A stretch of 64,000 bases of DNA from Ceratodon purpureus (lineage: Eukaryota; Streptophyta; Bryopsida; Pseudoditrichales; Ditrichaceae), in NCBI GenBank assembly GCA_014871385.1, contig CM026431.1, positions 13,173,594 to 13,237,593 of the forward strand, written 5' to 3'. Below are positions 33,646 to 59,612 of the stretch, piece after piece. The notes beneath the pieces are model-generated. The model did no database searches, was not told the origin of the DNA, and saw nothing but the letters and a program-made list of their open reading frames with translations. Both the position numbers and the translations under genes were made by a program. Positions within the stretch are counted from its first letter, which is position 1, and every line of letters starts with the position of its first letter.

Positions 33646-33745
33646 CAGAAGGGTTGTCTATTCGGACGGACATGGGCAAAATTTCCGGACATAGACGGAC
33701 GGACGGACGGACGGACCGGTCGGTCCCCGGACATAATCGGACATT
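33646..33745 (+). repeat. Left terminal repeat and GGAC subterminal repeats
   Basis: AGGGTTGTCTATTCGGACGG begins at 33650. It is followed by several GGACATAG/GGACGG units, a run of GGAC tetramers at about 33695-33716 and ACCGGTCGGTCC. The counterpart lies inverted at 45720-45780. CCCTTCAGAAGGG at the edge is itself palindromic. Confidence 0.65.
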
Positions 33746-33876
33746 GAGGGGAGGAGGAAAATTACTAAGTTAGTTTTTTTTTTTTACAACTTACCTATAG
33801 GGGAAACATATTGATGACATGGACAACGAACGATGACGGGGAATTCCACATATGCAAAAGGGGTGCCAGCATGTGT

Positions 33877-34028
33877 AGGGGGCGAGAGCGGGTACAGGGG
33901 GGGCGCGAGCGGGTTCAGGGGGGGGCGCGAGCGGGTTCAGGGGGGGCGCGAGCGGGTTCAAGGGGGGGCGCGAGCGGGTTCAGGGGGAATGGGCGCGAGC
34001 GGGTTCAGGGGGGGCGCGAGCGGGGTAG
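33877..34028 (+). repeat. G-rich tandem array 1
   Basis: About seven units of GGGCGCGAGCGGGTTCAGGG type, near 20-22 bp each. It lies between the left terminus and the 3' end of the RING gene. Translations of this array (RERVQGG...) are not real proteins. Confidence 0.9.
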
Positions 34029-34277
34029 ATAGTAAATTTTTGACAATGCAAAAAAACCTAACATTTTCATCAGAATAATATATTGGTACTAAGCGCAATG
34101 ACAAAAGTGTAAATTCAGCATAGAAAAAATGAGATACTCGTGAGCCAAAATACATGGACTTTGCAAAGTTGTATACATTTATGAAAGTAAAAGCATTTCA
34201 TTACCAATTCAAACCAAAACATTACAAAAACTGTAGTATATGAAAACTAGTCACTTAGTACTAAGTTGTAACTATTC

Positions 34278-36658
34278 CTATTCATCTGCATCTACTCCCG
34301 CTGTGCCACTTGGTCCCGCTCCATCGTCCAGCGTCAAGCTGCGCCTGGCTCTCGTCCGTGTCCGCCGGAATGGGCCATCACTTTCACTGAGAGAACGCAA
34401 AATTTGCGAGTTCCTCAATTCTCTCAATGTACGCAATGTCTGTGGAGAGTGTTCCTCCAGAAGAAAGTCAACAGCCTCATGTTTGAAAATTAACTTCCAC
34501 TCCGAAAGAGACATTTGGACTGCATCACGGGCGGTCAAAGACATGAATTGACCTTCGAGGTCTGTAACCAATTCCCCGTCCTTGTTCCATATGAGGCCTT
34601 TTGGGTGATTACCAAGTTGGAACTTCCTATGCTTCGGATCCCAGTATCCATTCAAAGTCTGATAGAAGAAATTTCGTTTCCCTTGGTCCTCCTTCTTTGA
34701 TCCAATTATCTTCTTTGCCACCCTCACAATCTGATTGGGGTCATCCTCCCACCCCAACTCGTCACTTACATTGCTCTTGAAGACCGAGTGAGTCTGGGCC
34801 CGCCAACTCCAAATCAAATCTTCCCCCCACATGTTGCGGTACTGTTCACCTGGTGTGTTTTCGGGATTTCTCTCATGGCTTGGTGGCATGTATGGAGTGA
34901 GTCCAAAAACCTCGTACAAGCGTTCATGGAACGGGAATTTGCACACCGGGCAAAATCTCCTTACCAAAAAAATGTTAATTAAACACATTGGATGGAACAT
35001 GTGGGTACATGATCCAACTGCCCATCCACCCTCAGGACCAAATGTATTTATACACACACTACATTCTTTTGAACCATCCATCACCCACGGTTGAGGATTT
35101 GGCCAAAGCTTTCTGCTATTAACTCCTTCCTTCATCTGAAGATCATGGCACGAAGTTGCGTTCTTCACATCGAAATTCAACTGGGCCCAATCTATGAGTT
35201 CAGGATTCGATTCTTGCTTTGGCATGTTATCTGGATACATATCATCTGCGTTAGTCCATGAAGTGAGGCCAAAATTCCTTCGTCTGTTGTGTTGCAAGTA
35301 CGATTCGTCGATCTTCTTGAACTCTAATGCAATTTGGCGACCGCGATCAACGCTGAGAATGGTTGCCACTTTCCACTCGTAGTATGCTTTAGCAAACTTA
35401 GAAACAAGAGCCGCAAATCATTATTGGCTCTCTTCAATGTCTCCACTTCTCCCGTTAGAGCATTGGGTGGAAATGACAAGGAATCTTGACTTAATGGTCC
35501 ATCGATGTCCACATAGGGTCGCGGGTATGGGGCTGGTGGAGGCAATATCACTCCAACTCGTCGTCGTTTTGCTGGAGTGGAAATATTCTCCAACACACCG
35601 GCCGTCGCAACATCAACCGTGTTGTTGATGTAAGATTCATCCACCAACATTGGATCTTGAACTACAGGTATATCATTGGCTTGAGAAGACTGAGGTCTTT
35701 CTCGTTCTTGCAATTGATTGCGCAAATCTGATATTACTGCATCTTTTGCTGCTGATTCCAATCGTAGTTTTCGGATGGTCTCTTGTAACTCTGCAATGAA
35801 GCCATCCTTTTCTATTAGCTGTAATTGTAACTCCCCGACCTCCTCGGTCTGGTTAGACTGGTCATTTCTAACTAGAACCGGCATGCCAAGAACCATCGTA
35901 GGTTCAGTTCCGACCACGTCCAAATTAGCTGCCGTATTTGGATCGTTTTCCACGAAGATGGTGTTCGCATCGTCGTGAGGTTCTATGACGTCCGCTGGAT
36001 GGTTCATTGGAGGCTCTACAGCCATATTTGCTGGTGCTGCAATTCTACGTGGCACTCTTTCTCCACGACGACCATCGGAATCAGAATCTGGTTCAGACTC
36101 TGCTGTATCAGGCTCCCGCACTTGTGTTTTTTCCTTCATTTTTTTCCCCAGGCCACCATCTGCGTATTTCCTTTGTTTGGGAATGTCACGCTCTGTCGGC
36201 GCCCTAACACTCGGCGTGGATTTGATGGTGGACCAATCCACCACTTTGTGAAGCACTACCTCAGCATACACCATTCTGCAAATGAACAATGGTACTTCAT
36301 TGCGTTCAACACATCGTTGCTTGTATAGATGCTGGTAAACTTGTATAGAACGTTCAACAAACTCCGCATTCAAGCAATAATAGAGGTTAGCCTTGTCTGA
36401 GATCCTGTGTTTTCTGTGCCGATCATGTGGAAATATTTTTGTGATGTGGCACCACTCAATGAATTCCTCGCATGTGGAATATTTCCACGGTTCCGGCTCA
36501 TCTTGCCAACCTCTAAATGCCAACTTTGTGGGGTTGTTCAGCACATGAAGCCGCTTCTTCATCTTCTTACCACCACGCTTCCGTTCACGATCTCTGATTT
36601 TTTTCTTTTCGGCCTTGGTGAGTGGCCTTTCCTCCGCCGGATCTAGGTTTCCCTCCAT
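34278..36658 (-). CDS. Coiled-coil and RING-H2 protein carried by the giant element, frame broken once
   Basis: The gene starts at 36658 (MEGNLDPAEERPLTKAEKKK) and ends at 34278. Two frames, 35324-36658 (444 codons) and 34278-35369 (363 codons), overlap near 35370-35400. The first has a basic start, a Trp/Tyr-rich segment (STCEEFIEWCHITKIFPHD), an acidic linker and a coiled coil (ELQLQLIEKDGFIAELQETI...). The second has a RING-H2 finger with ligands at its residues C103, C106, C121, H123, H126, C129, C140 and C143. The RING predicts E3 ubiquitin ligase activity. Coding content of the second frame continues upstream of its first codon (FAKAYYEWK), so one protein is likely. Either one nucleotide is missing or a short intron ends at TTTCTAAG. 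No cellular orthologue was recognised. Confidence 0.7.
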
Positions 36659-36988
36659 CGTGGTGTACTGGTAAAGTTTTGTGTGTTAAAAAACACACCA
36701 ACTCCTCAAAACTTCCCCCAATTGATTTTACAATTTTCCTCCGTGGTTGATTATGGTATTGTAACTATACTTTGTGGCCCACCCAAGTATTCAGCAATAA
36801 GCCACCATGAGGTAGTTTAGGGCCCGAATTCCCGGATGAGCGTACAAAAAACAGTAGAACAAGGTACGTGGCGCTGTCAAAATGCTGTAGACCCCACCCA
36901 AGTACTCAGCAATAAGCCACCGCGAGGTAGTTCAAGGCCTGAGTGCCAAGGTGGAGCTAAAAAAAGTGGGGGGGGGAGGGCGCCCCCT

Positions 36989-36995
36989 TCACTTA
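36989..36995 (-). promoter_or_regulatory. TATA box of the RING gene
   Basis: On the minus strand the sequence reads GACTATATAAGTGAAGG directly after array 2, about 330 bases before the start codon at 36658. The phrase GACTATATAAG recurs in the kinase promoter of the same element at 39193-39202. Confidence 0.6.
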
Positions 36996-36997
36996 TA

Positions 36998-37001
36998 TAG
37001 T

Positions 37002-37039
<38 letters not shown>

Positions 37040-37515
37040 CGCGAGCGGGGTCGGGGGGGCGCGAGCGGGGTCGGGGGGGCGCGAGCGGGGTCGGGGGGCG
37101 CGAGCGGGGGTCGGGGGGGGCGCGAGCGGGGTCGGGGGGGCGCGAGCGGGGTCGAGGGGGCGCGACCGGCTGAGGGGGGGGCGCGAGCGGGATTAAGGGG
37201 GGCGCTCGCGGGTTTAGGGGGGGGCGCGAGCGGGTCTCGGGGGGGGGGGGGGGGGGGGGGGGGGGGCGCGAGCGAGTTAGGGGGCGCGAGCGGGATTAAG
37301 GGGGGGCGCTCGCGGGTTTAGGGGGGGGTGCGAGCGGGTCTCGGGGGGGGGGGGGCGCGAGCGAGTTAGGGGGCGCGAGCGGGTATGGGGGGGGGCGCGA
37401 GCGGGTATGGGGGGGGCGCGAGCGGGTATGGGGGGGGCGCGAGCGGGTTCAGGGGGAGGTGCGCAAGCGGGTATGGGGGGGCGCGAGCGGGATCAAAGGG
37501 GGGCGCGAGAGGGTC
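36998..37515 (+). repeat. G-rich tandem array 2
   Basis: About 25 units built on GGGGGGCGCGAGCGGG, with GTC, ATTAA, TATG or TTCAG as variable spacers and two very long G runs (about 37003-37039 and 37239-37266). It lies upstream of the RING gene. The long homopolymers make the exact length unreliable. Confidence 0.9.
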
Positions 37516-37519
37516 CCCC

Positions 37520-37915
37520 CCTTAAAACAAACTCTCATTTCCTTAGGAGTACCATTGAAGAAGGTTGGAAGACAATAATAAAAGCAAATGCAATGGATTT
37601 TTTCACCATTTCTCTCTAAAATAAAATTAAAAATTAAAAATTAAAAAGGGATATTAAAATAAGGAATACTGATTTGAATAATTTGGGGATGAGAAATCAA
37701 ATTATAGAAAAACAATCATGACTATAATAAGGGACTCGGGATAAAAAGGGATGAATAACATGGGATGAAAGAAGTTATCAAGATGAATAAATCTCATGGT
37801 GGTTAGAAACTGAGTTATCCCATAACGGAATACTGATCTAATGCACCATGAATAATATAATGTTGACTACAAGAAAATTAGTGTATTAATATTAGAAGAG
37901 ATGTGGAAATCCAAA
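37520..37915. other. AT-rich spacer inside the giant element
   Basis: No supported frame. It separates array 2 from the 210-bp tandem repeats. Confidence 0.5.
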
Positions 37916-37917
37916 CA

Positions 37918-38795
37918 AGATAAAACATTGGAAGAGACGAAGGGAATAAAATAAAATCAATATCATGGAGAGGAAGAGATAAAAGGAATAAATTAAAATC
38001 AATAGCATGGTGTGGAAATACCCAGGATTAGAGTTTAAAAAAATAAAAAATATAATGCATTGAACATACGGATCCTACAATGCTCTAACATATAATTAAA
38101 AATATAAAGAATCATAAAGAAGGGCTTGATGCAATTGGTTTGGCAGATAAACGGAATAAAATTAAATCAATAGCATGGAGTGGAAGAGATAAAAGGAATA
38201 AAATAAAAAGAATAGCATGGTGTGGAAGAGAGTTCGATTAAAGTTTAAAAAAATAAAAAATATAATGCATTGTACATACGGATCCTACAATGCTCTAACA
38301 TATAATTAAAAATATAAAGAAAAATCATAAAGAAGGGCTCGATGCAATTGGTTTGGCAGATAAACGGAATAAAATTAAATCAATAGCATGGAGTGGAAGA
38401 GATAAAGGGAATAAAATAAAAAGAATAGCATGGTGTGGAAGAGAGTTCGATTAGAGTTTAAAAAAATAAAAAATATAATGCATTGTACATACGGATCCTA
38501 CAATGCTCTAACATATAAGTAAAAAAAAAAAAGAATCATAAAGAAGGGCTCGATGCAATTGGTTTGGCTGATAAACGGAATAAAATTAAATCAATAGCAT
38601 GGAGTGGAAGAGATAAAAGGAATAAAATAAAAAGAATAGCATGGTGTGGAAATACGTAGGATTACAGTTTAAAAAAATAAAAAATATAATGCATTGTACA
38701 TACGGATCCTACAATGCTCTAACATATTATAAAGAATCATAAAGAAGGGATCGATGCAATTGGTTTGGGAGATAGACGTTTTAAAATTAAATCAA
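37918..38795 (+). repeat. About 210-bp tandem repeat, four copies
   Basis: The landmark CATACGGATCCTACAATGCT recurs at about 38066, 38275, 38488 and 38699, a period of 209-213 bases. Each unit holds ATCAATAGCATGGAGTGGAA and the related AGAATAGCATGGTGTGGAA, so there is an internal sub-duplication. The repeat is AT-rich, unlike the G-rich arrays on both sides, and sits near the middle of the giant element. Confidence 0.9.
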
Positions 38796-38965
38796 CAGCA
38801 TGGAGTGGAAGAGAGCTGCATGAGAGGTTGTGCAAGTATAAAATCCCAATAGTTTGTATTTTTTAATTTGTTTTATTTTATTTTTTTCTCTTAGAAAGTA
38901 GTGTAGAGATTTCACTATTTCCAGAAGAAAAATAGAAAATAAAAAATTAGTTCGAAAACAAATGG

Positions 38966-39187
38966 AAGGGGGGGGCGCGAGCGTGTTCGAGGGGGGCGCG
39001 AACGGGTGGGGGGGGGGGGGGGGGGGGGGGGGCGCGGACGGGTACGGGCGCGAGCGGGTACAGGGGCGCGAGCGGGTGGGGGGGCGCGAGCGGGTACGGG
39101 GGGGGCGCGAACGGGTATAGGGGGGGGGGGCGCGAGCGGGTACAGGGGGGCGCGAGCGGGTTCAGGGGGGGGCGCGAGCGGGTCCGT
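38966..39187 (+). repeat. G-rich tandem array 3
   Basis: Units of GGGGGGCGCGAGCGGGTACAG type, about 20-22 bp, directly before the kinase gene promoter. Orientation is the same as in arrays 1 and 2. Confidence 0.9.
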
Positions 39188-39194
39188 GGGGGAC

Positions 39195-39201
39195 TATATA
39201 A
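39195..39201 (+). promoter_or_regulatory. TATA box of the kinase-like gene
   Basis: GGACTATATAAGGTGGGGAG lies eight bases after array 3 and about 160 bases before the start codon at 39358. Confidence 0.65.
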
Positions 39202-39357
39202 GGTGGGGAGAAGCTCTCGCCCCCCTCACTCCTTCCCACTGCGGCTCCTTGTCCTGACGTGTGAAAACACGCCTTGCTTGGAACTGCTTATGTGGGAAGT
39301 CTTCATTGGGGCGGGGGGGGAAGTTGTTGATTTTTTTTTTCAGGGATTTACTTTGCG

Positions 39358-40938
39358 ATGTCTTCTAGACAAGGCTCCGGCAAGCGGCCTATGTATGTGG
39401 ACTTGGATGCTCCAGATGCGGTGGACCCTATGAGTTGCGTAACACCTCATGGTTCTAGTGGTTCTACTCCTTCATCTAGCTCGAAGGGTAAAAAGAAGAA
39501 GAGTATTCCAGCGCACGAGAAGGATGACGGTTATCCACCATTGGAGTATACGCATTTCATCAGGAAGGTGGCCGTCGAGTACTACAAGGCCCGTACCATA
39601 CCAATGTTGAAGGCAATGTACCTCGATCACGGAGAGAATGGTATCTACAACCTCCAACGTGATTTGGAAAGGGAATTTTGGAGCGCATTGGAAGGATCAG
39701 AGATGTACATGGATTGCATGACGAAGTATTTTCACAGCCCGAAGTGGTTGACACAACAAGTGAGTAGTGCTACGACAAATGTCATTCATGTGTTTGAATC
39801 ACATGTCAAGAAACCACAAGGCGAAGAATGGAGCAACCAAGACAAAGTGTTTATTCAAAAACTGACAACGGTTCAGGAGGCATGTCAGAGATGTTCTAAG
39901 GGGAAAACAAAGATTATGCCTTGGAATGAGCAAGCATTGAACTCAGCATTGGAAGCACACATGTATGGTGCATTGATATGGATTCCGGTTACGGCCAAGG
40001 TTGTGCCATTATCTGGCTTCAATGCCGAGGGGGGGTATGGCAAAGTGCGAAAAGTGCGAATAGCCAATATGAAGAAAATTCCAATTCACATAGAATTTGC
40101 GGGAAAACTTTCCAAGGCTAAAACCGAAGTGAAGAAGCGAGAGGAACGGGCGATTGAGGCCACGGTTAACCCCATAGAGCATCCGGGTGTGATAAAATTT
40201 TGGGCCATTCACGCTAAGACCATGGAAGCTTATACCCTGTGGTGGAATGGAGATTGCCTCCGCAACTTCCTCAAGATAAATGAGAAGGCATCCGAGGCAA
40301 CAGATTACAAAGAAATTTTGAAGTCGAGGGATATGCCCATGGAAGAGTGCCAAAGAATTGTTGCCTACCGAAAGAACCGGGGAATGTTGGCGTGGAGTCT
40401 CATCTACGTTATGGACATAGTCCATAAGGCTGAAATCCTCCACAACGACTTAACGCCATCCAACATTCTACTCCACTTTCCACCTCATGACAAGGATAAA
40501 GTATATATTGGTGTGTGCGATTGGGGTGTGGCAAGCAGAGTCATTGAGAACAAGGCCTCCCCTTATGGTGTGATGGACCCCGATGAACTTGTACAAGTAA
40601 AGGAGAGGAGGGTAGGAGTTGCACCGGAGTTGTTCTTTTTATATGGCAAAAAAGATGATGAGGAACGGAATTTGGAGCGCATGAAGAGGATGCATCCATG
40701 TACGACGCTATCTGATGCATTTTCGGTAGGCCATTTGGCAAAGAAGATATGGAGAGAAGAAGATTGCCCAGAACTCTTCAAGGATTCAATCTCAAAGATT
40801 GTATTCTCATCAAAGTTGGATGGCTTGCTTAACGAAGATCCTACGAAGAGGCTTTCACTTGCAAAAGTTGTGAATGATTTGATGAGCCCCCCTTACAACT
40901 TCCAAGCTCCCAATGGTTGTTTTAGATACACATTGTAG
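39358..40938 (+). CDS. Protein-kinase-like protein carried by the giant element, 526 aa
   Basis: A single uninterrupted frame starts at ATG 39358 and stops at 40938. The N-terminal 210 residues hold a basic low-complexity start and an unrecognised helical domain. From about residue 218 a protein kinase fold is clear. The glycine loop is G225-G-Y-G-K-V230, the ATP lysine is probably K250 (FAGKLSK), and a helix-C glutamate is nearby (E262-E267). The catalytic loop is H362-N-D364-L-T-P-S-N369, the metal motif D388-W-G and the A422-P-E424 motif (VAPELF) follow, and helix F has SDAFSVG. All catalytic residues are present, with HND and DWG replacing HRD and DFG, so the kinase could be active. Its place between two genes of a transposon suggests element cargo. 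Substrate unknown. Confidence 0.85.
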   Translation: MSSRQGSGKRPMYVDLDAPDAVDPMSCVTPHGSSGSTPSSSSKGKKKKSIPAHEKDDGYPPLEYTHFIRKVAVEYYKARTIPMLKAMYLDHGENGIYNLQRDLEREFWSALEGSEMYMDCMTKYFHSPKWLTQQVSSATTNVIHVFESHVKKPQGEEWSNQDKVFIQKLTTVQEACQRCSKGKTKIMPWNEQALNSALEAHMYGALIWIPVTAKVVPLSGFNAEGGYGKVRKVRIANMKKIPIHIEFAGKLSKAKTEVKKREERAIEATVNPIEHPGVIKFWAIHAKTMEAYTLWWNGDCLRNFLKINEKASEATDYKEILKSRDMPMEECQRIVAYRKNRGMLAWSLIYVMDIVHKAEILHNDLTPSNILLHFPPHDKDKVYIGVCDWGVASRVIENKASPYGVMDPDELVQVKERRVGVAPELFFLYGKKDDEERNLERMKRMHPCTTLSDAFSVGHLAKKIWREEDCPELFKDSISKIVFSSKLDGLLNEDPTKRLSLAKVVNDLMSPPYNFQAPNGCFRYTL

Positions 40939-41157
40939 TTCCATAGTGAATTACGTTTGGAACATTTTGATTGCCTATGTGGCCTTGTTTGCACATTTCT
41001 AATATTTTAATAAATCGTTTTTTCGGCGTATACATGCCTTGGTGGAACATGAAATGGTATTGTTGGTTTTGTAATGGAATGAAAAATTGTTTTTAAAAAA
41101 AAAATGAAAAAACTGTATGGCCCATTCACCGGGACTGCCCCTCGTACAAGGGTGCCT

Positions 41158-41447
41158 CCCCCCTGAACCCGCTCGCGCCCCCCCCCTCTGGAAGCTCGCG
41201 CCCCCCCCCCCCTTCCAGAAGCTCGCGCCCCCCCTCTGAGAAGCTCGCGCCCCCCTTTGCAGTAGGTTGCGCCCCCCCCCCCCCCTTGGAGAAGCTCGCG
41301 CCCCCCCTTGGAGAAGCTCGCGCCCCCCCCTGGAAAAGCTCGCGCCCCCCCCCTATGGAGAAGCTCGCGCCCCCCCCCACCTGGAGAAACTCGCGCCCCC
41401 TGCACACGCTCGCGCCCCCCCCGCCTGGAGAAACTCGCGCCCCCCCT
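41158..41447 (-). repeat. G/C-rich tandem array 4, opposite orientation
   Basis: About thirteen units such as GAAGCTCGCGCCCCCCCTTG on the plus strand, which is GGGGGGCGCGAGCTTC on the minus strand. The core GGGGGGCGCGAGC is the same as in arrays 1-3 but inverted. It lies between the kinase and transposase genes. Confidence 0.9.
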
Positions 41448-41451
41448 CACG

Positions 41452-41459
41452 AGTATAAA
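41452..41459 (+). promoter_or_regulatory. TATA box of the transposase gene
   Basis: GAGTATAAATGCC directly follows array 4, about 200 bases before the likely start codon at 41658. An acceptor-like CACTTGCAG at 41612-41620 allows a short 5' UTR intron. Confidence 0.55.
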
Positions 41460-41657
41460 TGCCACCAACTTAGCCCAAGCCCAATATCATTTGAAATCAT
41501 GGCCTCTAGTCCCGGAACTCCTTGTGGGCTCCTTGCTTGAGACTATGTGCATCACATTGGCCTGTGGTTGATGTCTACACATACCATTTTTTTCTCACAT
41601 GTGTCATACTAACACTTGCAGACAGGAGATCATTGTACTTTTTCAGAGACACGGAGA

Positions 41658-44444
41658 ATGGCAGGTCAACAGCGTCAGTCGACGGCTGAGTGGGCTCCGT
41701 GGTGGACGTTCATTGATAAGGACCATGTGAAATGTGTGTGGTGCAATTTCACCTTTCGTTATAAACGACAAAGAGCTTTCAAGCACTATGGATGGGGTGA
41801 AGGTTCAAGCAAGAGTCATTGTACCAAGGCCCCCGCCGCCGTATTTAGGCGCTTTGCCAATTGTGGTAATGTAATACCAAAAAGAATGACACATGCGGAG
41901 ATATACGGCACTGATGGTGGTGATGGCGAGGCACACTTGGCACACTTGGCACCATGTTCTAGCCAGTCTATGCCTGCTGAGCAATCTACGGAAGTGCCTC
42001 AGATAACGGAGGAGGTCCAAGAGGAGAGGATTTCCCAAGTTCAACCGTCTCAGTCAACTCCGCCTATAAGCAGAGGCGATTCATGTACACCAAGATCTAT
42101 GCGGCAACAAAGTTTTACCGAGGCCTATCAGATTGGGATGCGCAATGAATTGGATGAGAAATGGGCGTCCTATTTTTATGAAGCGAATGTGCCTTTCAAT
42201 GTGGTTAGACATCCATCTTTTATCGCTGCTGTGGAGGCAACATCGAAAGCGGGTTTTGTGTACCGTCCACCAGCATACAACGCAATGCGAACCAAGCACA
42301 TCCAGCCAACAAAGCAGCTTCTCAAGTTGAGAATAGAGGAGAAAACGAAGCAGTGTATTAGCTTGTACGGGGCAACTATTTGCTCGGATGGATGGGACAA
42401 CGTTGTTCATCGGCCGTTGATGAATGTCATGCTTGTGTGTCCAGCAGGAGATATATTCCTAGGTTCCATTGATACAACGGGGTACAAGAAATCAAAGGCA
42501 TACATAGCTGGGAAATTGAAAGAGTACATCAAAGAAGTTGGACCGCAGAATGTGGTACAGATTTGCTCCGACAATGCTAGTGCGATGTTGGGAGCCATGG
42601 ACCAGGTGGTTGAAGCTTATCCTCACATTTACAAGCAAGGTTGTGCAGCTCACATCATGGACCTCTTACTAGAAGATTGGGGGAAGGAAGCAACCTTCAA
42701 AGAGCTGATTGCCTTGGCAAAACGCATACCAAATTTTATACGTCGCCGTCATGTCACCATGGCTTTGTTTCGCCAATTCAGCCCGAAGTTGTCTCTGTTG
42801 TTACCAGCGGAGACAAGATTTGGATGCTCGTACTTGATGATTGTTCGATTGCTTGAACTGAGGGAGGCACTAATCCAGGTGGTAGCCAGTCCGAAATGGG
42901 ACGAATATGTGGGTACTTTATTCAATCGGTCAACCGGGTATCGAGCTCACACCTTAGCATGTCAAGTACGGAGTACCATTCTCGATGAGACATTTTGGTT
43001 ACGTTGTGAGAATCTTGTGCATGTTATGAAGCCGGCTGTTGTGACCTTGAAGACATTTGATGGACAAACACCGGCAATGGGGAGGGCATGGTTGGCCATG
43101 AATAATTTGAAGAAGCATGTGTTCCGTCTACGGGGTGATCCTTTTTTCCTAGACCCCGCTATAGCAGATCGCTTTGAGAAACATTTTACGAAGAGATGGA
43201 AGATGATGTTGACAGATCTCCATTACGCAGGCGCCATTTTGAATCCCTACATTTTCCCGGAGAGCCACGAGCTATTGACTAACAGTGCTGCGAAGCGTGC
43301 ACTCCTGCAAGTGCTAATTCATTTGAGTGAGTGCCTTAAACTGGACCACGATACTGTGTTGTTCGAGCTAACACAGTTTGAGGAACGCACCGGTCCATTC
43401 AGCCCTTTGGAGGCCCCAAACAATCGACAGACTAAGATGCTACCTCATCAATGGTGGCAGCGGGTTGGGGGCGATGCGTTACCGTTGATAGCAAAGCGCA
43501 TCCTTTCGTTAACATGCTCGGCATCATCATGTGAGCGAAATTGGAGCATGTATTCCTTTGTTCACAGTAAGGTTCGCAACCGATTGGCCGTGAAGAAGGC
43601 AGAGGACTTGGTGTACATTTACACGAACAGTAAGCTCCTTCGAGAACGACGTGGAGCGGATCCTGTTCTTTGGTACGAGAACCAACCGTTCTCCGAAGAC
43701 TCGGATGAAGAAGTGCCAGCCATGTACGATGAAGACGTATGTGATGATGATGGAGATGAAGGATTCCACGACGGACTTGAAGTTAATGAAGGCGATGGTG
43801 ATGACGGTGGAGTTCATTACACTCCTGCTACTATGGATGATGAGTATCCAGAGTTACCCGTGGACAATGGTGATGGTGACATGCCACGCACTGAACCCGT
43901 TAACCAGCCGAATCGAGTTTTTGACTGGGCAGGATTTGATGAAGAGGCAGCTACTTCGCCTCACCACGTTGTCAATGAAATACAAGCTAGAGGCGAGGTC
44001 GCATACGATCGGGCAGACGATGATATTGACGATGAATTTGAAGTCGAAATGACTCAGCATCAAAGCGACGATGGTGGCGACAATGATGACATTCACCCCG
44101 TTCGTAGCGTTTCGAACAATGACAATGAAGAAGGGGGTAACAACATGGGAGAGCAAATTCCAATTCCAGAAGACGTTGAGGGAGGAGAAGAAGTTGAACA
44201 ACTCCAGGCCACTCTGCCAGTAAATGTTGAGGAAACAATCAGGTCTGGAGGTTTGGATGAAAGCCCTCCAAGAAATGAACAATCAGAGACAGTCAGAAAT
44301 GGACAAGAAGATGAAATTCCTATTGGCCGATTGTTTCGAACACCCCTGCCCCAGAGTACACCTTCAATCGGAGCAGTACTTGCAGGGTTGGGTCGACCCC
44401 CCCCCCACCTCGTTCAAGCACTTCTACTAGGCATGGTTCATTAA
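41658..44444 (+). CDS. hAT-family transposase of the giant element, 928 aa (tail frame-shifted)
   Basis: From ATG 41658 the protein starts MAGQQRQSTAEWAPWWTF and has a BED-type zinc finger (CVWC near residue 30, then H and C ligands in KSHC). A DUF659-like RNase H-fold core follows, with acidic residues D244 (CSDGWDN) and D305 (CSDNASAM). The C-terminal hAT dimerisation motif is at about residue 626 (CERNWSMYSFVHSKVRNRL). A long acidic tail follows. The frame ends at 44444 just after a run of ten C at 44397-44406. With eleven C the tail would run on to 44944. The transposase probably cuts and joins the ends of this element in the nucleus. Its core is complete, but the tail break may matter. 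Confidence 0.85.
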   Translation: MAGQQRQSTAEWAPWWTFIDKDHVKCVWCNFTFRYKRQRAFKHYGWGEGSSKSHCTKAPAAVFRRFANCGNVIPKRMTHAEIYGTDGGDGEAHLAHLAPCSSQSMPAEQSTEVPQITEEVQEERISQVQPSQSTPPISRGDSCTPRSMRQQSFTEAYQIGMRNELDEKWASYFYEANVPFNVVRHPSFIAAVEATSKAGFVYRPPAYNAMRTKHIQPTKQLLKLRIEEKTKQCISLYGATICSDGWDNVVHRPLMNVMLVCPAGDIFLGSIDTTGYKKSKAYIAGKLKEYIKEVGPQNVVQICSDNASAMLGAMDQVVEAYPHIYKQGCAAHIMDLLLEDWGKEATFKELIALAKRIPNFIRRRHVTMALFRQFSPKLSLLLPAETRFGCSYLMIVRLLELREALIQVVASPKWDEYVGTLFNRSTGYRAHTLACQVRSTILDETFWLRCENLVHVMKPAVVTLKTFDGQTPAMGRAWLAMNNLKKHVFRLRGDPFFLDPAIADRFEKHFTKRWKMMLTDLHYAGAILNPYIFPESHELLTNSAAKRALLQVLIHLSECLKLDHDTVLFELTQFEERTGPFSPLEAPNNRQTKMLPHQWWQRVGGDALPLIAKRILSLTCSASSCERNWSMYSFVHSKVRNRLAVKKAEDLVYIYTNSKLLRERRGADPVLWYENQPFSEDSDEEVPAMYDEDVCDDDGDEGFHDGLEVNEGDGDDGGVHYTPATMDDEYPELPVDNGDGDMPRTEPVNQPNRVFDWAGFDEEAATSPHHVVNEIQARGEVAYDRADDDIDDEFEVEMTQHQSDDGGDNDDIHPVRSVSNNDNEEGGNNMGEQIPIPEDVEGGEEVEQLQATLPVNVEETIRSGGLDESPPRNEQSETVRNGQEDEIPIGRLFRTPLPQSTPSIGAVLAGLGRPPPHLVQALLLGMVH

Positions 44445-44944
44445 CTCCAACACCGAATACAAGCATTCCACTCACTTCTTCTGGACGAAGTCTACCAGCT
44501 GGACCTTCTACGACGCGTCATGGAGTGATACGGTCACGGAAAGGTCCAACAAACGTTCGCCCTTTTTTTTCAGGATATACTGTTGGAACTACCCCGTCTT
44601 TACCTGTGGCTGTGGGTAAACGTAGATTACCCGTAATGAATGTGGACGGAATCACCGATAAGACCAAAAGACGGAAGATCAAAAGAATTGTGACCACAGT
44701 GGTGGATGGTACAATTGACCACGAATTGCGCAACATTCATTCCACGGTGGTGGAATATGTGCCTAATCAGGGGGGAGATGGAGATGACGAGGGGTCGAAA
44801 TCCTCAGAAGGATATTACTCATCAGAAGATAGCCGTGAAGAAGCACCTGATGATGAAGACATTGTTGTAAGAGTACCATTGGGTAAGCCCGGTACTCGAA
44901 GGAATCCAGAGCGGCGCACCGCCAAAAAAAACAAAAAAAAGTGA
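44407..44944 (+). pseudogene. Detached C-terminal tail of the hAT transposase
   Basis: In the frame reached by one extra C in the poly-C tract, coding potential continues without a stop from the tract to 44944. It passes through Ser/Thr/Pro-rich sequence (TPTPNTSIPLTSSGRSLPAG), a basic patch (KTKRRKIKR), an acidic stretch and a lysine-rich end (KKNKKK). The basic patches suggest a nuclear-localisation tail. A one-base indel in a homopolymer, real or a sequencing error, is the simplest explanation. Confidence 0.65.
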
Positions 44945-45032
44945 TACATCTATTAGCATATTACATATAGAAGTTATATAGAGAAAGTATAATATATATG
45001 TCTCCAAAATAATTTTAAAAAAACACAAAAAA

Positions 45033-45103
<71 letters not shown>
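45033..45103 (+). repeat. (TA)n microsatellite
   Basis: About 35 TA units at the 3' side of the transposase gene. It could form a cruciform. The rest of 44945-45275 is AT-rich and holds no gene. Confidence 0.95.
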
Positions 45104-45105
<2 letters not shown>

Positions 45106-45278
45106 AAATTTTATACGTAGATACTTATATGTTAACCTTAGTCAATGTCCATAAAACATTAGCTAAGGCTATTGAATGTAATTTTTTTTCGACATGAATT
45201 GAAACTTCTCTCATTTCTGTCACTATTTAAAATTCAGTAGTGTCTTAATTTCCTTCAGTGGTTGATTCTTGTTCCCAG

Positions 45279-45560
45279 CTCGCGCCCCCCCTTCGCAGGC
45301 GCTCGCGCCCCCACCCTAAACCCCTTGCTCGCGCCCCCCTGCAATCGCAGGCGCTCGCGCCCCCCCCCCCCCCCCCCCCCCCCCCGCCATCGCAGGCGCT
45401 CGCCCCCCCCCGCCATCAAAGGCGCTCGCGCCCCCCCCCCCCCCTCGCAGGCGCCCGCGCCCCTCCCAGTCGCTCGCGCCCCCTCGCTCGCGCCCCCCTT
45501 CCCAAGACGCTCGCGCCCCCCCTCTCAGGCGCTCGCGCCCCCGTCACTCAAGGCGTTGGC
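45279..45560 (-). repeat. G/C-rich tandem array 5, opposite orientation
   Basis: Units of GCAGGCGCTCGCGCCCCCC type, with a 28-base C run near 45357-45385. Same inverted core as array 4. It occupies the subterminal position on the right, as array 1 does on the left. Confidence 0.9.
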
Positions 45561-45699
45561 GCCCTTCCTCTTAGCCACGTCAACCCCCGAGTCAACAATA
45601 TATGTGGAATATTTGGTGACATGTCAGACGCGTGGCATCCTAGGTGGCAAAGGTAACTCCCATTTCACCATTTGGGTGGTCAACCGTAAGTCCTGGTCA

Positions 45700-45780
45700 T
45701 ACGGACCTCCCCTGACCCCTAACGGACGGACGAGCGGACCGGACGGACGGACCGGTCCTTTTGTCCCATGAACAACCCTG
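45700..45780 (-). repeat. Right terminal repeat and GGAC subterminal repeats
   Basis: GGACGGACGAGCGGACC, GGACGGACGGACCGGTCC and then TTTTGTCCCATGAACAACCCTG, which is inverted with respect to the left end. GGGTTGT and the ACCGGTC element occur at both termini. Confidence 0.65.
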
Positions 45781-45822
45781 CCCCTCCTTGATCTTAAGAG
45801 GACTTCCATAGAGTGATTCAAG

Positions 45823-45930: not shown

Positions 45931-46462
45931 CATACCCGTTCAGGCTGGGATGTGCCACTTCGACGAGACGTCGTGGGGCCATGATGCCACTCCGTCTCCG
46001 TCGCCATCAGTCCATTTCGCCCGCCGCCTCCTTCCCCACTCACACTCAGCGCCACCCCCCCACTCTCAATTGTCATTTCCCAGATTGGGTTTTGGGAAGC
46101 TTTCGCCTGCATTTAGCACCTGCACTCCCGGGAAGTTCGCCATTGTTGCTGTTTACGTTGCTCAGTTGTGGCCAGCGCTCCAGCGCGCAGTGAGAGTTTT
46201 TCTGGTTTTGCCTCGTTTGGGTCCTTGCGCCGGCTTTGTGTAGAATTGAGATTATTTTCGTACTGTTCGTGGAGGATTGTCGACATGAGGGCGCTGGGAT
46301 TTAAGGGAGTGTCTCTAACCTTCCTTCACTCACTGCTTGTCGATCAGCTTCGTCGCATTTGTGTTGAATTGCTCATGATCTGTGCTCGGGTTGATTGCTT
46401 TCATTCTGTCTCTGATTTGTTTCCGGTGGGTTTTTTTGGGTTTTGCTGCGTCTTTGGACACA

Positions 46463-49351
46463 ATGGCATTGGTTGCCATGCGACCCTTTGGACCGAAGGT
46501 TCAAGCACCCTTGCGGAAGTTTCTTTATGAGGGGCGGGTTGATTGCTTGGGTGGGGGTTCCGGTGGCTTGGGCGGGGGTTCTGGTGGCTTGGGCGGGGGT
46601 TCATCGGTGCTTGCGGGACTTGGGGACGAGGTGAAGCTGGAGTTTCCTCCACTCTCCGACTCCCCTCTTGAGTCAGACTGCATTATCGATGAGATCCGAA
46701 GCACCCCTGCAAAGCCTCCGGCTCATGAGGTCACCGTGAGTTCTGAGTCGAGTCCCTCCAGGAAGCGTCGGAAAAATTATGACCACCGCCGTCACTTCCA
46801 AGACTCGTGGGCAGCAAAACTGCCGTGGGCTGAGTCTGTCATTGGGGAGTCGGGGGTGATAACACAAGTCCGTTGCAAAATCTGTAGTGACGTCGAGGGG
46901 AGGGAAAAGCTTCTTGTGCCGAAACTGGACTCCCTGTACAAGCACGCTGGGAGGAGGAGAGCTATAGTTGACATGGGGAAAGTTAGGAGAGGAGAGTACT
47001 ACTATCTGGGGAGCAATCAGCATGTTAAGAATGAGAGAGTGTTTTTTGCGAAGGGGGGCCAGACGGTGATCACGAAGGTGTTGGCCGGGGTCACGAAGGA
47101 AAGGCGCCGAAAGATAATTCAATTCCGCTGCTGTTTGCAGATCCTCCAGCAGGGTCGCCCGATGGCCGATTACACAGCCATGCAAACCCTTCTAACTCAT
47201 CTCCAGGTACATTCAGTTATTTCAATTTTGTTTTTCATTTTGCTCGTGTCCTTGGTCGTTTCATGACATTAACAGCGCTGCATGGATTCTGCAGCGTGGG
47301 TGATGCTGCATGTGGTCATGGTCTTCGTTTACTTCGTTTAGTGTCCCTGTATCGTAGAGGTGCTGGCCGTGTACGTCGTCGTTGAGCTTCAGTCTCTATC
47401 CTGCCCCTGCTCTAAGCAATGAGCTTCTCAGGTTTTTTGTTTTTTTTTTAGTCGCTGCGGTTTTAGTTGCAGTGCTGGTTGATTTCCTTCGTGTTCGTGG
47501 CCGGGTATTAAGGTAGGGGTTGGGGTCGTCTTTGTGTTGTTTGATGTTGCTGTTCATGCTGTTCATCATCCTCTTGCTTTCTGACAGTGTTTGTTGTTGA
47601 TGATTTTGCAGGTCCCAGAGCTTCCGAAGAAGCACTGGAACCAGGTTTCCGGGTGGGATTTCGCCAATTCGATGGCAAAGGTCTGTGCAGACCGGCTGAA
47701 AAGAGACTTAGCCAAGGCCACCTGCATATCTGCAAGTGCAGATGAAGTGACGGCACTTGACAACTCACAGTGGCTTTCCATTCATGTTTATTTTTCTGCT
47801 AACTTCTCTCGGCAGTCCCATATGATCTCAGTTCGTCGTGTCGATGTTGAGGCCAATGCTCAGAATTTGACTGAGCTTATTATCGAGCAAATGTCTTGGC
47901 ACGGTGGGCTCTCTGCCCAAGATTTCGCAGAAAAGCTTATCTGCTTTGGTGCTGATGGAGCAGCGGTGTTCCAAGGGGCCCGCTCAGGTGTGATTGAGCG
48001 GCTTAAATCTGAACATGCCCCTTATGTAATTCCGGTTCATGACTTTGCTCACCGCACTAACTTGGCCGTGGAGGCTATGTCCGATTTGCCATTTGTTCAG
48101 AAACTGGAGGCTTTGTGCAAGAGCCTGCATTCGTATTTTTCAAAGTCACCTAAACGCCACCTGGAGTTCACAAAGCTTGCTGAGGTTGTGGAGACAGAGG
48201 GACTCAAGATCTTGAAACAAGTTCAGACACGGTGGATTTCTCTACTTGAGCCCCTGAAACGGATACAGTCGGAGTATAAAACTTTGATTGTGAAATTTGC
48301 AGAAGATGCCCCAAAGGAAGGTGCGGCAAAAAAAAATCTGACCCTGCTCCTTGATGCTGCGACCTTGCTTGCACTCCCCTGTATCCTACCGATGCTTGAG
48401 TGCATTCAGTCGTTGTGTAAATTTGCCCAAGCCCGGAATGTCTTTATTTCGGATTTCATTGCTGCAGTAAAAATTTGCCAAGGTGAATTATTCATGATGT
48501 ATGTTGATCAGTCAAGTTCTTTTCAGCCACTCCATTTCCAGGCCTTTCACGATGTGATTGACGATCATTCTCATTTGATCACCCATGAATGGGTTACTGA
48601 CCTGAATAATGGAAACGAGACTCTGGGATTTCGTATCCATGGGCATACATACCCTGCCCACATGGTGCATGCGGTTACGGGTGAGCATGTCCCTGTTTCG
48701 AGAGATGACTTCAAGGGGTTAGTCTCGGCTGTGAAGGGGCAGTGTAGTGCTGCAGCCGAAATGCTGATAGGTCAGCTTGATCGCCGATTTCCTAACTGTG
48801 ACATTATGGAAGCACTTGGTGTGGTATTTCCACAGTACTGGTTGCAGGAGGGCTGTGACGACCTTTTTCCTACTCACCTGCAGGTGCTGCGAGAGTGGTT
48901 CAGTCACGAAAAATCAGTTGATGTAACTGATGGGAATAGTCGCCCTGTTAAGGCTCCTCTTGACGGCCATTTGCTGTCCATGCAACAATGCTTGTTCAAG
49001 TTAACTATGAAGTCACATGCTCTTAAGGCTATGGAGAATCCGGATGATATCAACCCTGTCACGAAAATGTGGCAGAAATTGGGCTGCAATGCCTTGCTTT
49101 TAAGCAAGATTTCTGAATATTTCAAGGTTGCCGAAATTGCTGTTACAGCGATTCTTGGATCCGTTGAAGATGAGCGGACATTTTCAACCTTGACATTCCT
49201 CAAAACCAAGGTCAGAAACCGACTCCATGGAAACTTGAATACTTGCATCAAATTATTTTCACAGACATGGTATGATATTGAAACGTTTCCCTACAACCAA
49301 GCATTCGATCACTGGAGGGAATCAAGGGAGAGGTCGGGTGCAAATTTGTGA
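46463..49351 (+). CDS. Intact two-exon hAT-family transposase, 827 aa
   Basis: Exon 1 is 46463-47206 (ATG chosen as the first after the 5' leader, MALVAMRPFGPKVQ) and exon 2 is 47612-49351. They join in phase 0 at LQ|VPELPKK with a GTACAT donor and TTTTGCAG acceptor. Exon 1 has a glycine repeat (LGGGSGG three times) and a BED-like finger region (CKIC ... LYKHAG). Exon 2 carries the catalytic fold with SADEVT, CFGADGAAVFQG and HDFAHRTNL. The C-terminal hAT dimerisation motif is EDERTFSTLTFLKTKVRNRL. Type resembles ZBED/KIAA1586-like hAT transposases. No stop or frameshift is seen, so this copy may be active or domesticated. The relic at 29511-30160 is a close relative. Confidence 0.85.
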
Positions 49352-55098: not shown

Positions 55099-55240
55099 CA
55101 TGGCTGCATATTTGAATTGGCGTGAATTTGAAGAAGCTCTTTTGCCTGGACAAAGTGGTGCTAATTGGCATGATATTAAAGCACGCCTATTTGAAGTTAT
55201 ATGCAATTCACTCATAGATGATATTAAAAAGATGCATTGA
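55099..55240 (+). pseudogene. Short protein-coding fragment of unknown element
   Basis: ATG at 55099 opens 46 codons (MAAYLNWREFEEALLPGQSG...) ending at a stop near 55240, immediately before the LINE fragment. Composition looks like real protein, but no family was recognised. It may be part of another retroelement or an exon. Confidence 0.3.
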
Positions 55241-58200
55241 TTTTGAAAATCTTTTGCCCAAATCAGCCTTGAACCGCCCACCCAGCCATTTGAGACTGAA
55301 ATTGTTTGGTTATACCAACGATATAAATATCGTGTCCCCAAGAATGACCCCTTCCAATGTGCACAGTATACTCAGACCGCCTCTGATATTGGACTCTCTC
55401 ATTAACACATTTCACATTACCAAATCCTACTTCTCCTCTCCAGTTACCTGCCCTAGTCAACTCACTCAATTCCACTCCCTATTCTCCAGAGATAAACTCT
55501 TTAGCTCCCTTGGGAAAGCCTTCAATCATAAATGGTCTGGCATCGGTTACGCCCACCCTCACACCGCTCTCGACCCACAACAAACCATCCACTGGACCCG
55601 ACTTGCAGCCAAAACCGATCCGACCACCATCACTCTCGTCATCTCTCCGAATCCTATTTGGTATCGAAACTTCAACCCCTATGTTGGCCCCTTCCCCGAT
55701 ACACACATTATCGCCCAATTCGCTGCGGACACCATTACCTATGATGAACCCACCATACCCCCAAAACTCAACCTTGAACGGAAGGAACTCTTGGCGCTCC
55801 AAATCCTGTGCATCCACCACCAAAGTAACCCCATTGGCTCCACGGACCTCCTCCAACAACTTACAACCATAGCAACCATCCTTCAAATATCACAAATTCA
55901 CACCACCATCGCACCCCCTACTCCTCCACATACCCCCGTTTACCTAAACAAACAATGGTCTAAATTTCTTTATCCCTTCATCCCTCCAACTGCCCAAACA
56001 ACCTTCCCCCCGCTCCTCCATTACCACACCAACTTCCCCCTCAAATTCGATCCACAATTTAGCTATTACACTGATGGATCCTTCAAACCCCCCAAAGAAA
56101 TTGCCCCAAACGAATGGCTGCGTGAACGTGCCGGCTATGGTATCTACAGCCCCAAAGGCCTACACATCTCCAAACGACTTCACAGTCACAAAACATAGTT
56201 ACATACTCCGTGCCGAGATGATGGCAATCCACAAAGCCCTTAGAATCCTCAACAGACAATTTCCTAACGAACCGGCATATATATTCACGGACTGTCTCAA
56301 TGTATTATACTTACTCAACACACAAATCAAACATCCCACTCTACACAATAGTCATCCCGATCAACTTACACTTGCTTCCATGGTCGAACTTCTCCAACAA
56401 CGGACACAACCAATCTCACTATACAAAGTTCGTGCCCATATTAACATTGACAACAACCAAGAAGCAGATTTGCTAGCAAAAAAAAGGACTCACAAAGCTC
56501 ATCGTAACGCTCAGCACCCTACGAACATGCCTATGCCACCCCTTACTACTTCCAAAAAGACAATTGGCCCTCGATGATATTTGTTCCAAACAAAGGCCCC
56601 GTTCGAATCCTCGATAAACAAATCACGAAATATGATAGAGAAAAAAACTTATAAATAATGGCCATACAAACCCCAACATCCGCAAATGGACGGGCAACCC
56701 TGACATCAACAATGATCTCTCTAATGATTTCTGGAATAACCCCGCAGTCACCGACAAACAAAAATCCTGCCTAATTATATTTCGCACCGGAACATACATG
56801 GGCCAAGCCCGAAAACAACTATTTTTTGGCAGAGACCGATTCCCGTCTATCACTTGCCCCATTTATTTCTCTCGTGAACCAGATACCTAGTTCCATGTAC
56901 TCCTCACCTGCCAACAACAACACCTCCATTTCCTCCGCGTCCAACGACATAATAGAGCCGTCTAGGAAATTTGAACATTACTTGTTTCTTCTGAGAAATC
57001 TCGTTGTTTTATTCTCATGAATGGTGGCACCTTCAATGACAAACCCCTGGAGAATACTCTCCCCAATTGGCTCCTTCCTTGCACTTGCGGCACACAACGC
57101 TGCCATTGTAACTCTCGATTCTGTGCAGACATTCATTGCGTCAAAGGCTTGCCATACCAAAGCAACGGGGCCTACGGAAATAGACCCCAATCTCACCATC
57201 CAATTCAATCAATTCACCTACTGTAATGACCGATTTTTCCCAGAAAGACTTGTTGCAAAAACTAACAAATACAATCCCTTAACCCCTAAAGCATCAACTC
57301 AACAGTTTTGGTATGATTTTGGGTCTGGTCAGGCTCCTATGAGTCAAATTTTACCGGATTTGGTTGTAACTTTGGCACAGCATGGGAAATTGTCATATCT
57401 TTCTAACAAGACCAAATTTTATTTTCATCAGGCGCGTAGTTAAGAAATAATTCGTGTTTAAAGATCAAAATTCAATTTAGGGCAGCTCGGGCGGGTTTGG
57501 AGTGGTGTACCAAATTTGTGACAGTCTACAGTGACTTCCAAATGATCATGTTTCAAATCGTTTCACAATTTTCTTTAAAAATTGATTTTAAAACCGTAGG
57601 CAGCTATCAGGGAGATTTTGGACTCAACCCAACTAATATCCTCTTTTTTTTTAATTCATTCGGTTAAGGGAGATGATACCTGGATGATAATTTGACAATA
57701 TCTGGGTGATACTTGTCTAATATTCATGTAATACATGGATGATTTTTATTATTTTCAACTGGAAATTTGCCTAAGGAATTCAAGTTCAACCGGCTTAACC
57801 TCAATTCTGGTCGATTGATCTGTAACTAGCTGTCCGTTCTCCCCGTGCATTGACCGTAGGATCTTGATCAGAGCCATCCAATTAGTCTATGTACCAAGTT
57901 TTGTAAATTTTGACCATACGGATCTTGAGATATATTTAGTCAAAGTTCCAAGTTTTATAAAAACTTTCAAACAGCTTCGTCACCCATTTTTCCTTCACCA
58001 TTTTCTCCTCCTAAACCATAGTATATGCTGTAAAATTCATATCTATTTTGGATTTATTTATTTTTTGGATTCTTTTCCTCTAAAATCTCTTTTCCATACA
58101 AATGCATGTATATACCGTTCGGATTTCAAAAAAAATAAAATGATCTTCTTACGCATTTGTAGTGTGGAAAAAGAGCCAGTGTATACAGTATACATTTCAT

Positions 58201-59073: not shown

Positions 59074-59257
59074 AAGAGAAAGGAAGGAGAGAGCGAGAGA
59101 GAGAGCGAGAGAGCGAGAGAGACGCATATGAGAAGAGAGAGAGATGAGAGAGACGATAGAGAGAGATACGAGAGAGGAAGGAGACGAGAGAGAGAAGAGA
59201 GAGAGGAGAGAGAGAGAGAGTAGAGAGAGAGGAGGAGAGAGAGAGAGTAGAGAGAGA

Positions 59258-59302
<45 letters not shown>

Positions 59303-59358
59303 GAGAGAGAGAAGCAGAGAGAGAGGAGGAGAGAGAGATAGAGAGAGAGCGAGAGAGG

Positions 59359-59391
<33 letters not shown>

Positions 59392-59524
59392 GAGAGGAAG
59401 AGAGAGCGAGAGAGAGAGAGAGAGAGAGAGAGATGAGAAGAGAGAGAGAGAGAGAGAGAGAAGAGAGAGAGCGAGAGGAGAGAGAGAGGAGAGAGAAGAG
59501 AGAGAGAGAGTCGATCTCTCTCTA

Positions 59525-59612
<88 letters not shown>
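59074..59612 (+). repeat. GA-rich to TC-rich microsatellite, inverted halves
   Basis: From 59074 to about 59512 the top strand is almost pure AG/GAG with a few C or T. From about 59515 to 59612 it is almost pure TC. The switch is at GAGAGTCGATCTCTCT. The two halves can pair into a long hairpin, and purine tracts of this kind can form triplex DNA. Confidence 0.95.

What the first reader, a model, noticed from the sequence alone, without database searches (positions are those of the whole stretch)
33646..45780. Candidate undescribed 12.1-kb hAT-like transposon carrying a kinase and a RING-H2 protein
Mirrored termini (GGGTTGT..GGAC plus GGAC repeats and ACCGGTC) bracket a hAT transposase, an apparently catalytic protein kinase-like gene and a coiled-coil/RING-H2 gene. 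hAT elements usually code for a transposase and little more, so kinase and E3-ligase-like cargo with its own promoters would be a new gene set for this superfamily. The orderly layout (gene, array, gene, array) suggests co-evolved parts, not chance capture. The cargo could modify the host or the transposase.
Basis: partly seen in the sequence, partly recalled or inferred. Interest (0 to 1): 0.88.

Follow-up and report, generated by a model that had tools for sequence, protein, structure and literature searches.

The report
Three-gene jumping element in moss
This is a real, recently multiplied 12-kb jumping DNA element of a moss that carries, besides the enzyme that moves it, two further genes (a protein kinase and a ubiquitin-ligase-like protein) that look kept by selection, so it may bring its own helpers into the host cell.

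Summary
The finding holds up. Window 33649-45780 is one hAT-superfamily DNA transposon, in a genome I infer to be the moss Ceratodon purpureus. That genome gave 676 first-look places for its transposase; the 40 scored print as 100% identical. I fetched 20 of the 39 other copies: 20 of 20 have the kinase, 19 their own RING gene in the same order. Of 14 copies with both ends in view, 9 have perfect 8-bp target duplications, 1 has 7/8, and 4 have none but share a flank with another copy. One copy sits inside another; its joined flanks match 14 of 19 other held copies without a break at 93% or more: an empty site. All three genes show fewer amino-acid changes than expected, so the extra genes look maintained, not dead cargo. 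A CpG-rich motif, GCGCGAGC, fills five arrays, two subterminal and three beside TATA-like boxes of the three genes, facing inward from both halves. What kinase and RING do is inferred; my leading guess is countering host silencing. The window copy is damaged. Accessory genes in DNA transposons, fungal hATs included, are known; this gene pair I did not find in ten open-licence paper searches.

The parts
33649..45780 (.). whole hAT element (14 other copies: 11,633-12,985 bp)
   Evidence: breakpoints against genome copies; lengths
33649..33726 (+). left terminal region (AAGGGTTGT here, CAGGGTTGT in the 16 other left ends in view) with GGAC repeats
45720..45780 (-). right terminal region ending ACAACCCTG
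33876..34024 (+). left subterminal array of GGGGGCGCGAGCGGG units, about 21-bp period, 6 exact cores
34278..36658 (-). coiled-coil / RING-H2 gene (792-793 aa in intact copies; frameshifted in this copy)
   Evidence: intact in 12 of 20 copies
36993..36999 (-). TATA-like box of the RING gene, beside its array
   Evidence: anchor found in 19 of 20 copies
37036..37513 (+). array upstream of the RING gene, 16 exact cores
37943..38814 (.). A+T-rich 213-bp tandem repeats, 4.2 copies here; in copy c16 the target of the nested insertion c17
38966..39190 (+). array upstream of the kinase gene, 7 exact cores
39195..39201 (+). TATA-like box of the kinase gene
   Evidence: anchor found in 20 of 20 copies
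39358..40938 (+). protein kinase gene, 526 aa; Lys250, Asp364, Asn369, Asp388 present
   Evidence: intact in 18 of 20 copies
41165..41450 (-). array upstream of the transposase gene (motif on the minus strand), 9 exact cores
41454..41460 (+). TATA-like box of the transposase gene
41658..44944 (+). hAT transposase gene (1094 aa in intact copies; in this copy the frame ends at 44444 and the tail continues in another frame)
   Evidence: 1094 aa in 5 of 7 other copies checked
45275..45560 (-). right subterminal array (motif on the minus strand), 9 exact cores

Best explanation
It is a self-contained, recently multiplied hAT DNA transposon with three maintained genes. SHOWN (by sequence): defined ends, 8-bp target duplications, one empty site, the same three-gene unit in the copies fetched, fewer amino-acid changes than expected in all three genes, and a shared motif array at both ends and upstream of all three genes. 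INFERRED: the transposase binds the GCGCGAGC arrays (they are oriented like hAT subterminal repeats) and cuts and pastes the unit; because the same arrays lie beside the TATA-like boxes of the three genes, transposition and expression are coupled. CONJECTURED: kinase and RING-H2 protein are trans-acting helpers of the element, a phosphorylation/ubiquitination pair. My leading guess (about 0.4) is that they counter host silencing of the CpG-rich promoters, as VANC does for VANDAL elements; next (about 0.3) that they control amount or activity of the transposase.
For: Own-genome search: 676 first-look places, 40 scored, each printed as 100% identical over 1600 bases. 20 of the 39 other copies fetched: 20 of 20 with kinase, 19 with their own RING in the same order. 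The 16 left ends found begin CAGGGTTGT and the 18 right ends found finish ACAACCCTG (found by searching for 12 of these bases, so independent only for the outermost two bases and for the BLAST break points). TSD 8/8 in 9 of 14, 7/8 in 1. Empty site: flanks of copy c17 joined with one TSD copy match 14 of 19 other held copies continuously at 93-98%, the other 5 at 83-89%. pN/pS 0.27 kinase, 0.39 RING, 0.29 transposase; nonsynonymous share 27/53, 38/68, 14/28 against 0.73-0.74 expected, P 2e-4, 1e-3, 7e-3. Catalytic Lys in 106 of 106 kinase relatives, HxD Asp in 100, DFG-position Asp in 99. RING-H2 ligand pattern in 23 of 26 relatives. Motif: 29 on + in the left half, 18 on - in the right half; no exception in 18 of 20 copies, the other two being the nested pair. 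Precedents: VANC motif arrays (PMC5735166, passages), Hermes subterminal repeats (PMC10368747, passages).
Against: No expression or biochemical data. The 20 copies come from the best-scoring 40, so older and defective copies are under-sampled. Kinase and RING genes outside the element could not be searched for. Pfam recognises no BED zinc finger in the window transposase (1 of 21 aligned members, E 0.07). 4 of 14 copies lack a TSD. RING is intact in 12 of 20 copies (2 more have a 760-aa frame, 5 are broken, 1 lay outside the stretch), so it is less well kept than the kinase (18 of 20). TATA-like matches also occur elsewhere in the element. The arrays are at most five independent units, so the mirror orientation in the window alone has a chance of about 1 in 16 (own arithmetic).
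Confidence: 0.85

Rival explanations
1. Kinase and RING protein regulate the transposase itself (activity, import or turnover through phosphorylation and ubiquitination), limiting copy number, and have nothing to do with host silencing.
For: The same arrays lie upstream of all three genes, which would allow feedback; the transposase has a long acidic low-complexity tail, also present in relatives; a kinase plus an E3 ligase is a common phosphodegron pairing (recalled).
Against: No interaction data. At least 40 near-identical transposase copies and 676 first-look places do not look like tight self-limitation.
Confidence: 0.3
2. The kinase and RING genes are passengers: genes caught by a hAT element and carried along without function, as in many gene-capturing plant transposons.
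For: Gene capture by plant transposons is well known (review PMC13317346, passages). RING is broken in several copies.
Against: Uninterrupted coding frames with TATA-like boxes beside the element's own arrays; pN/pS below 0.4; 106 kinase and 26 RING relatives with conserved catalytic or zinc residues down to about 30-40% identity; a distant kinase and a distant transposase share the contig length 15,563, chance about 0.015.
Confidence: 0.07
3. The copies arose by segmental duplication or unequal exchange of a 12-kb gene cluster, or the window is a chance juxtaposition of separate elements.
For: Some copies share 250-bp flanks: c4/c5, c7/c12, c3/c15 on the left, c3/c4, c7/c11 on the right. The window copy lacks a TSD.
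Against: Nine copies with perfect 8-bp duplications, homology stopping at CAGGG/CCCTG, and a nested insertion with an empty site.
Confidence: 0.02

Closest known systems
hAT superfamily (Ac, Tam3, Hermes, Tol2)
   Same: Transposase with the hAT dimerisation domain, short CAGGG-type termini, 8-bp TSD, oriented subterminal repeats (Hermes: PMC10368747, passages).
   Different: Two additional maintained genes; arrays repeated upstream of internal genes; about 12 kb long.
Fungal hAT7 and IS3EU families with a TET/JBP dioxygenase (TET-bearing IS3EU also with an alpha-kinase gene), PMC12730594
   Same: DNA transposons, hAT among them, that carry accessory enzyme genes; one superfamily carries a kinase gene (passages).
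   Different: Other hosts and enzymes, 7-bp TSD in hAT7; no RING gene in the passages read; alpha-kinases are a different kinase class (recalled).
Arabidopsis VANDAL elements with VANC anti-silencing proteins, and KIU/Kaonashi elements with a ULP1 domain
   Same: Three-gene plant DNA transposons; dense same-orientation motif arrays in noncoding regions, including upstream of the transposase gene; an accessory ubiquitin-like-pathway domain in KIU (passages).
   Different: Mutator-type transposase, other accessory proteins, other motif (YAGTATTAY); anti-silencing is shown there and only conjectured here.

Membership tests
hAT superfamily transposon | hAT transposase with C-terminal dimerisation domain and DDE-type residues | tested here: met
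   Dimer_Tnp_hAT in 21 of 21 aligned members, DUF659 in 20 of 21; DGW, DNA and CE.NWS patterns in 35, 34 and 33 of 40 relatives (that these mark the catalytic residues is recalled)
hAT superfamily transposon | 8-bp target-site duplication | tested here: met
   8/8 in 9 of 14 copies, 7/8 in 1, 2-4/8 in 4; not in the window copy itself
hAT superfamily transposon | short terminal inverted repeats | tested here: met
   CAGGGTTGT / ACAACCCTG in the 16 left and 18 right ends found in 20 copies; 8 of 9 bases in the window
hAT superfamily transposon | N-terminal BED zinc finger | tested here: inconclusive
   zf-BED in 1 of 21 members at E 0.07; a loose CxxC..H..C pattern in 25 of 40 relatives
Active eukaryotic protein kinase | kinase fold with catalytic Lys, HxD Asp, Asn and DFG-position Asp | tested here: met
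   Pkinase in 39 of 39 members; AlphaFold pLDDT 82, top Foldseek hits are kinases, with modest TM-scores of 0.5-0.66 to the target; K250 in 106, D364 in 100, N369 in 104, D388 in 99 of 106 relatives. The motif is DWG, not DFG. Activity itself was not tested
RING-type E3 ubiquitin ligase | RING-H2 zinc ligands | tested here: met
   zf-RING_2 in 17 of 19 members; ligand pattern in 23 of 26 relatives and 12 of 12 intact copies
RING-type E3 ubiquitin ligase | E2-dependent ubiquitin ligase activity | not testable with these tools
   needs biochemistry
VANDAL/VANC anti-silencing system | Mutator-type transposase and a VANC protein | tested here: not met
   Pfam finds hAT, kinase and RING domains and no Mutator-type transposase; no direct comparison with VANC sequences was made. 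It may work like VANDAL; it is not filed as a member

The most novel reading that the evidence does not exclude
The kinase and the RING protein form an element-encoded phosphorylation/ubiquitination anti-silencing system that acts on the CpG-rich arrays present upstream of every gene and at both ends, evolved independently of VANC and of TET-type transposon helpers, and maintained across many related hAT families.
Probability: 0.25. Interest if true: 0.9.

Novelty: new variant of a known kind. Interest (0 to 1): 0.74.

Why it matters
hAT elements are usually described as one-gene elements. A hAT that has multiplied recently (at least 40 near-identical transposase copies, 676 first-look places), with two further genes that look maintained by selection and with a motif shared between its ends and its gene promoters, gives a testable system for how a plant transposon may use kinase and ubiquitin signalling. 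Its inferred host is a moss with a haploid body and U/V sex chromosomes, where gene knock-outs are practical (recalled); near-identical copies also lie on the 110-Mb contig that I take to be the V chromosome.

Tried and rejected
Viral-collection scans with the kinase, transposase and RING alignments found no relative, and with the array pattern none. A scan of prokaryote genomes with the kinase gave three weak matches in MAGs, not followed. Foldseek on the RING model (pLDDT 60) gave nothing better than E 4.9. Profile comparison found no domain shared between kinase and RING or between RING and transposase. BLAST found no second copy of the element in the window. Terminal repeats of the neighbouring hAT-like gene were sought without a convincing result. 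Ten paper searches (open-licence PMC papers only) listed no hAT with kinase and RING genes; a C. purpureus genome paper (DOI recalled) is not held, and Repbase was not available, so an existing annotation cannot be excluded. Contig-length coincidence: besides 15,563 (kinase P0060, transposase P0138) a kinase and a RING protein share the length 2,719, which is too short for both and is taken as chance.

Errors of mine: the transposase P value was computed one base out of frame; one search replaces it. In one search the window row of the transposase tree was out of frame in the same way, so its distances from the window are not used. One search stopped with an error after the kinase.
Full report
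Where it is. The window is C11:13173594-13237593 of a 362-Mb, 151-contig genome. Its contig C6 is 110,524,308 bases long, the same length as the contig that holds the Ceratodon purpureus protein KC19_VG232100, a relative of the transposase (77% over 62% of the query, 90% in the alignment). I infer the moss C. purpureus (taxonomy), male strain R40 (strain label recalled).

Is it one element? In the window alone the evidence is suggestive only: terminal repeats of modest significance, no target duplication, but one motif, GCGCGAGC, that occurs 47 times inside the element and never outside it in 64 kb. The genome settles it. A 1.6-kb transposase probe has 676 first-look places; the 40 that were scored, the window among them, all print as 100% identical. 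I took 20 of the 39 others, with 10 kb on the left and about 3 kb on the right. They are among the best scorers, hence biased to young copies. For the first ten, homology to the window starts at 33650 or 33647 (8 of 8 left ends in view) and stops at 45780-45782 (9 of 10; one runs to 45793). Searching the 20 copies for 12 bases of each end found 16 left ends, all CAGGGTTGT, and 18 right ends, all ACAACCCTG; ends that differ in those 12 bases would be missed. Fourteen copies show both ends: nine have identical 8-bp duplications, one has 7 of 8, four have 2-4 of 8. Each of those four shares at least one 250-bp flank with another copy (98-100% identity), as expected if ends were exchanged between copies; assembly error is not excluded. 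Full lengths are 11,633-12,985 bp (14 copies).

Empty site. Copy c17 lies inside copy c16, in its 213-bp repeats, with a perfect duplication. The only RING match in the c16 stretch (opposite strand) has the same genome coordinates as c17's RING gene, so c16's own RING gene lies outside the stretch. Joining c17's two flanks with one copy of the duplication gives 400 bases that match 19 other held copies, the window included, without a break: 14 at 93-98% and 5 at 83-89%. This is a within-genome empty site for exactly this unit. The target lies in tandem repeats of the element itself, so it is not an allelic empty site. Nine other joined flanks found no convincing empty site among the sequences held.

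Gene content. 20 of 20 copies have the kinase gene and 19 of 20 their own RING gene in the same order. Intact frames: kinase 526 aa in 18 of 20 (c3 and c16 broken); RING 792-793 aa in 12 of 20, a 760-aa frame in 2, broken in 5, not in view in 1; transposase 1094 aa in 5 of 7 other copies checked. The window copy has a damaged RING frame and a damaged transposase tail.

Selection. Among intact frames, pairwise pN/pS is 0.27 for the kinase (19 sequences, window included), 0.39 for RING (12) and 0.29 for the transposase (5); mean pairwise difference is 0.7, 0.8 and 0.4%. With a mutation spectrum from four noncoding stretches of the element, 74% of changes in kinase and RING and 73% in the transposase should be nonsynonymous; observed are 27 of 53, 38 of 68 and 14 of 28 two-state codon changes (P 2e-4, 1e-3 and 7e-3). 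Only intact frames were used and sites were treated as independent, so this is supportive rather than final. It says that the two accessory genes were constrained much like the transposase during a recent burst.

Protein families. 106 kinase, 40 transposase and 26 RING relatives were found. Identities fall in parallel (kinase 98, 75, 67, 66 to the window; RING 76, 70, 65 to its 97%-identical copy P0147; transposase 79, 67, 65 to the window, apart from P0112), which fits shared descent but is no proof of linkage. Many come from contigs of 2-4 kb, which look like transcripts (inference). A distant kinase (P0060) and a distant transposase (P0138) share the contig length 15,563; a jittered null gives 0.015 for at least one such coincidence among contigs over 5 kb. 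The kinase is predicted as a kinase fold (pLDDT 82; Foldseek) with a helical N-terminal region of unknown kind. Catalytic residues are nearly invariant in the 106 relatives. The RING protein has a conserved N-terminal part, a coiled coil, a RING-H2 and a conserved C-terminal part; only the RING, with weak coiled-coil-type matches, is known to Pfam, and its model is poor (pLDDT 60).

Arrays and promoters. Five arrays with units of about 18-26 bp carry the core. The three internal ones reach to within about 40 bp of TATA-like boxes at 36999 (-), 39195 (+) and 41454 (+), 163-341 bp upstream of the three start codons; the TATA pattern also matches elsewhere in the element, in the A+T repeats above all. 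The RING and kinase TATA anchors are found in 19 and 20 of 20 copies. The motif faces inward from both halves of the element regardless of gene direction, in the window and in 18 of 20 copies; the two exceptions are the nested pair. That resembles hAT subterminal repeats: in Hermes left-end repeats STR2-STR7 are antisense and right-end STR1-STR5 sense (PMC10368747, passages). Dense same-orientation arrays in noncoding regions are also the targets of VANC (PMC5735166, passages; PMC10398659, passages). CpG is not depleted in four of the five arrays (observed/expected 1.07-1.36; 0.79 at the transposase) against 0.66-0.83 in the three genes and the window flanks and 0.88 in the 213-bp repeats, which would fit little methylation or rapid turnover.

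Mechanism. Shown: a mobile three-gene unit with common arrays and constrained accessory genes. Inferred: transposase binding to the arrays and coupling of expression with transposition. Conjectured: helper roles of kinase and RING, anti-silencing first, control of the transposase second.

Known relatives. Fungal hAT7 elements carry a TET/JBP gene, and TET-bearing IS3EU elements also carry an alpha-kinase gene (PMC12730594, passages); VANDAL elements carry VANC, and KIU elements a ULP1 domain (PMC13317346, passages). Accessory enzymes in DNA transposons are therefore a known kind. A hAT transposase with a protein kinase and a RING-H2 protein did not appear in ten searches of open-licence papers (listings, plus passages of the five papers named).

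Open. Kinase and RING copies elsewhere in the genome, the number of full-length copies, other strains, and all biochemistry.

Noticed in passing
46382-49351 +: A second hAT-like transposase-type gene directly right of the element: two open frames without Pfam match, 31% identity to the element's transposase C-terminal region over 86 aa. No convincing terminal repeats found for it.
   Followed up: partly
L042, L044, L045 (C7:7544496-7561612): One copy (c17) inserted in inverted orientation inside the 213-bp repeats of another (c16): self-insertion with a perfect 8-bp duplication.
   Followed up: yes
L016-L021, L024, L025, L032-L035, L040: Copies that share one flank but not the other, some on different contigs, suggesting exchange between copies or chimeric assembly.
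   Followed up: partly
60841-60953 and 61984-62096 +: Two U5 spliceosomal RNA genes in the same direction, 1.1 kb apart.
   Followed up: no
8482-13599 +: Exons of a VPS13-type lipid-transfer protein (VPS13_VAB at 8482-9030; VPS13_C at 13231-13599, just under its cut-off).
   Followed up: no
55218-56577 +: Retroelement-like frames with an RNase H domain at 56074-56577.
   Followed up: no
22009-23250 +: Cysteine-rich open frame (413 aa) with a STIG1-like Pfam match, in a G+C-rich stretch.
   Followed up: no
59087-59610: Long GA and TC dinucleotide repeats back to back.
   Followed up: no
P0099: A distant kinase relative (28-29% identity) is labelled as a Bacilli MAG protein; probably eukaryotic contamination of that MAG (inference).
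   Followed up: no
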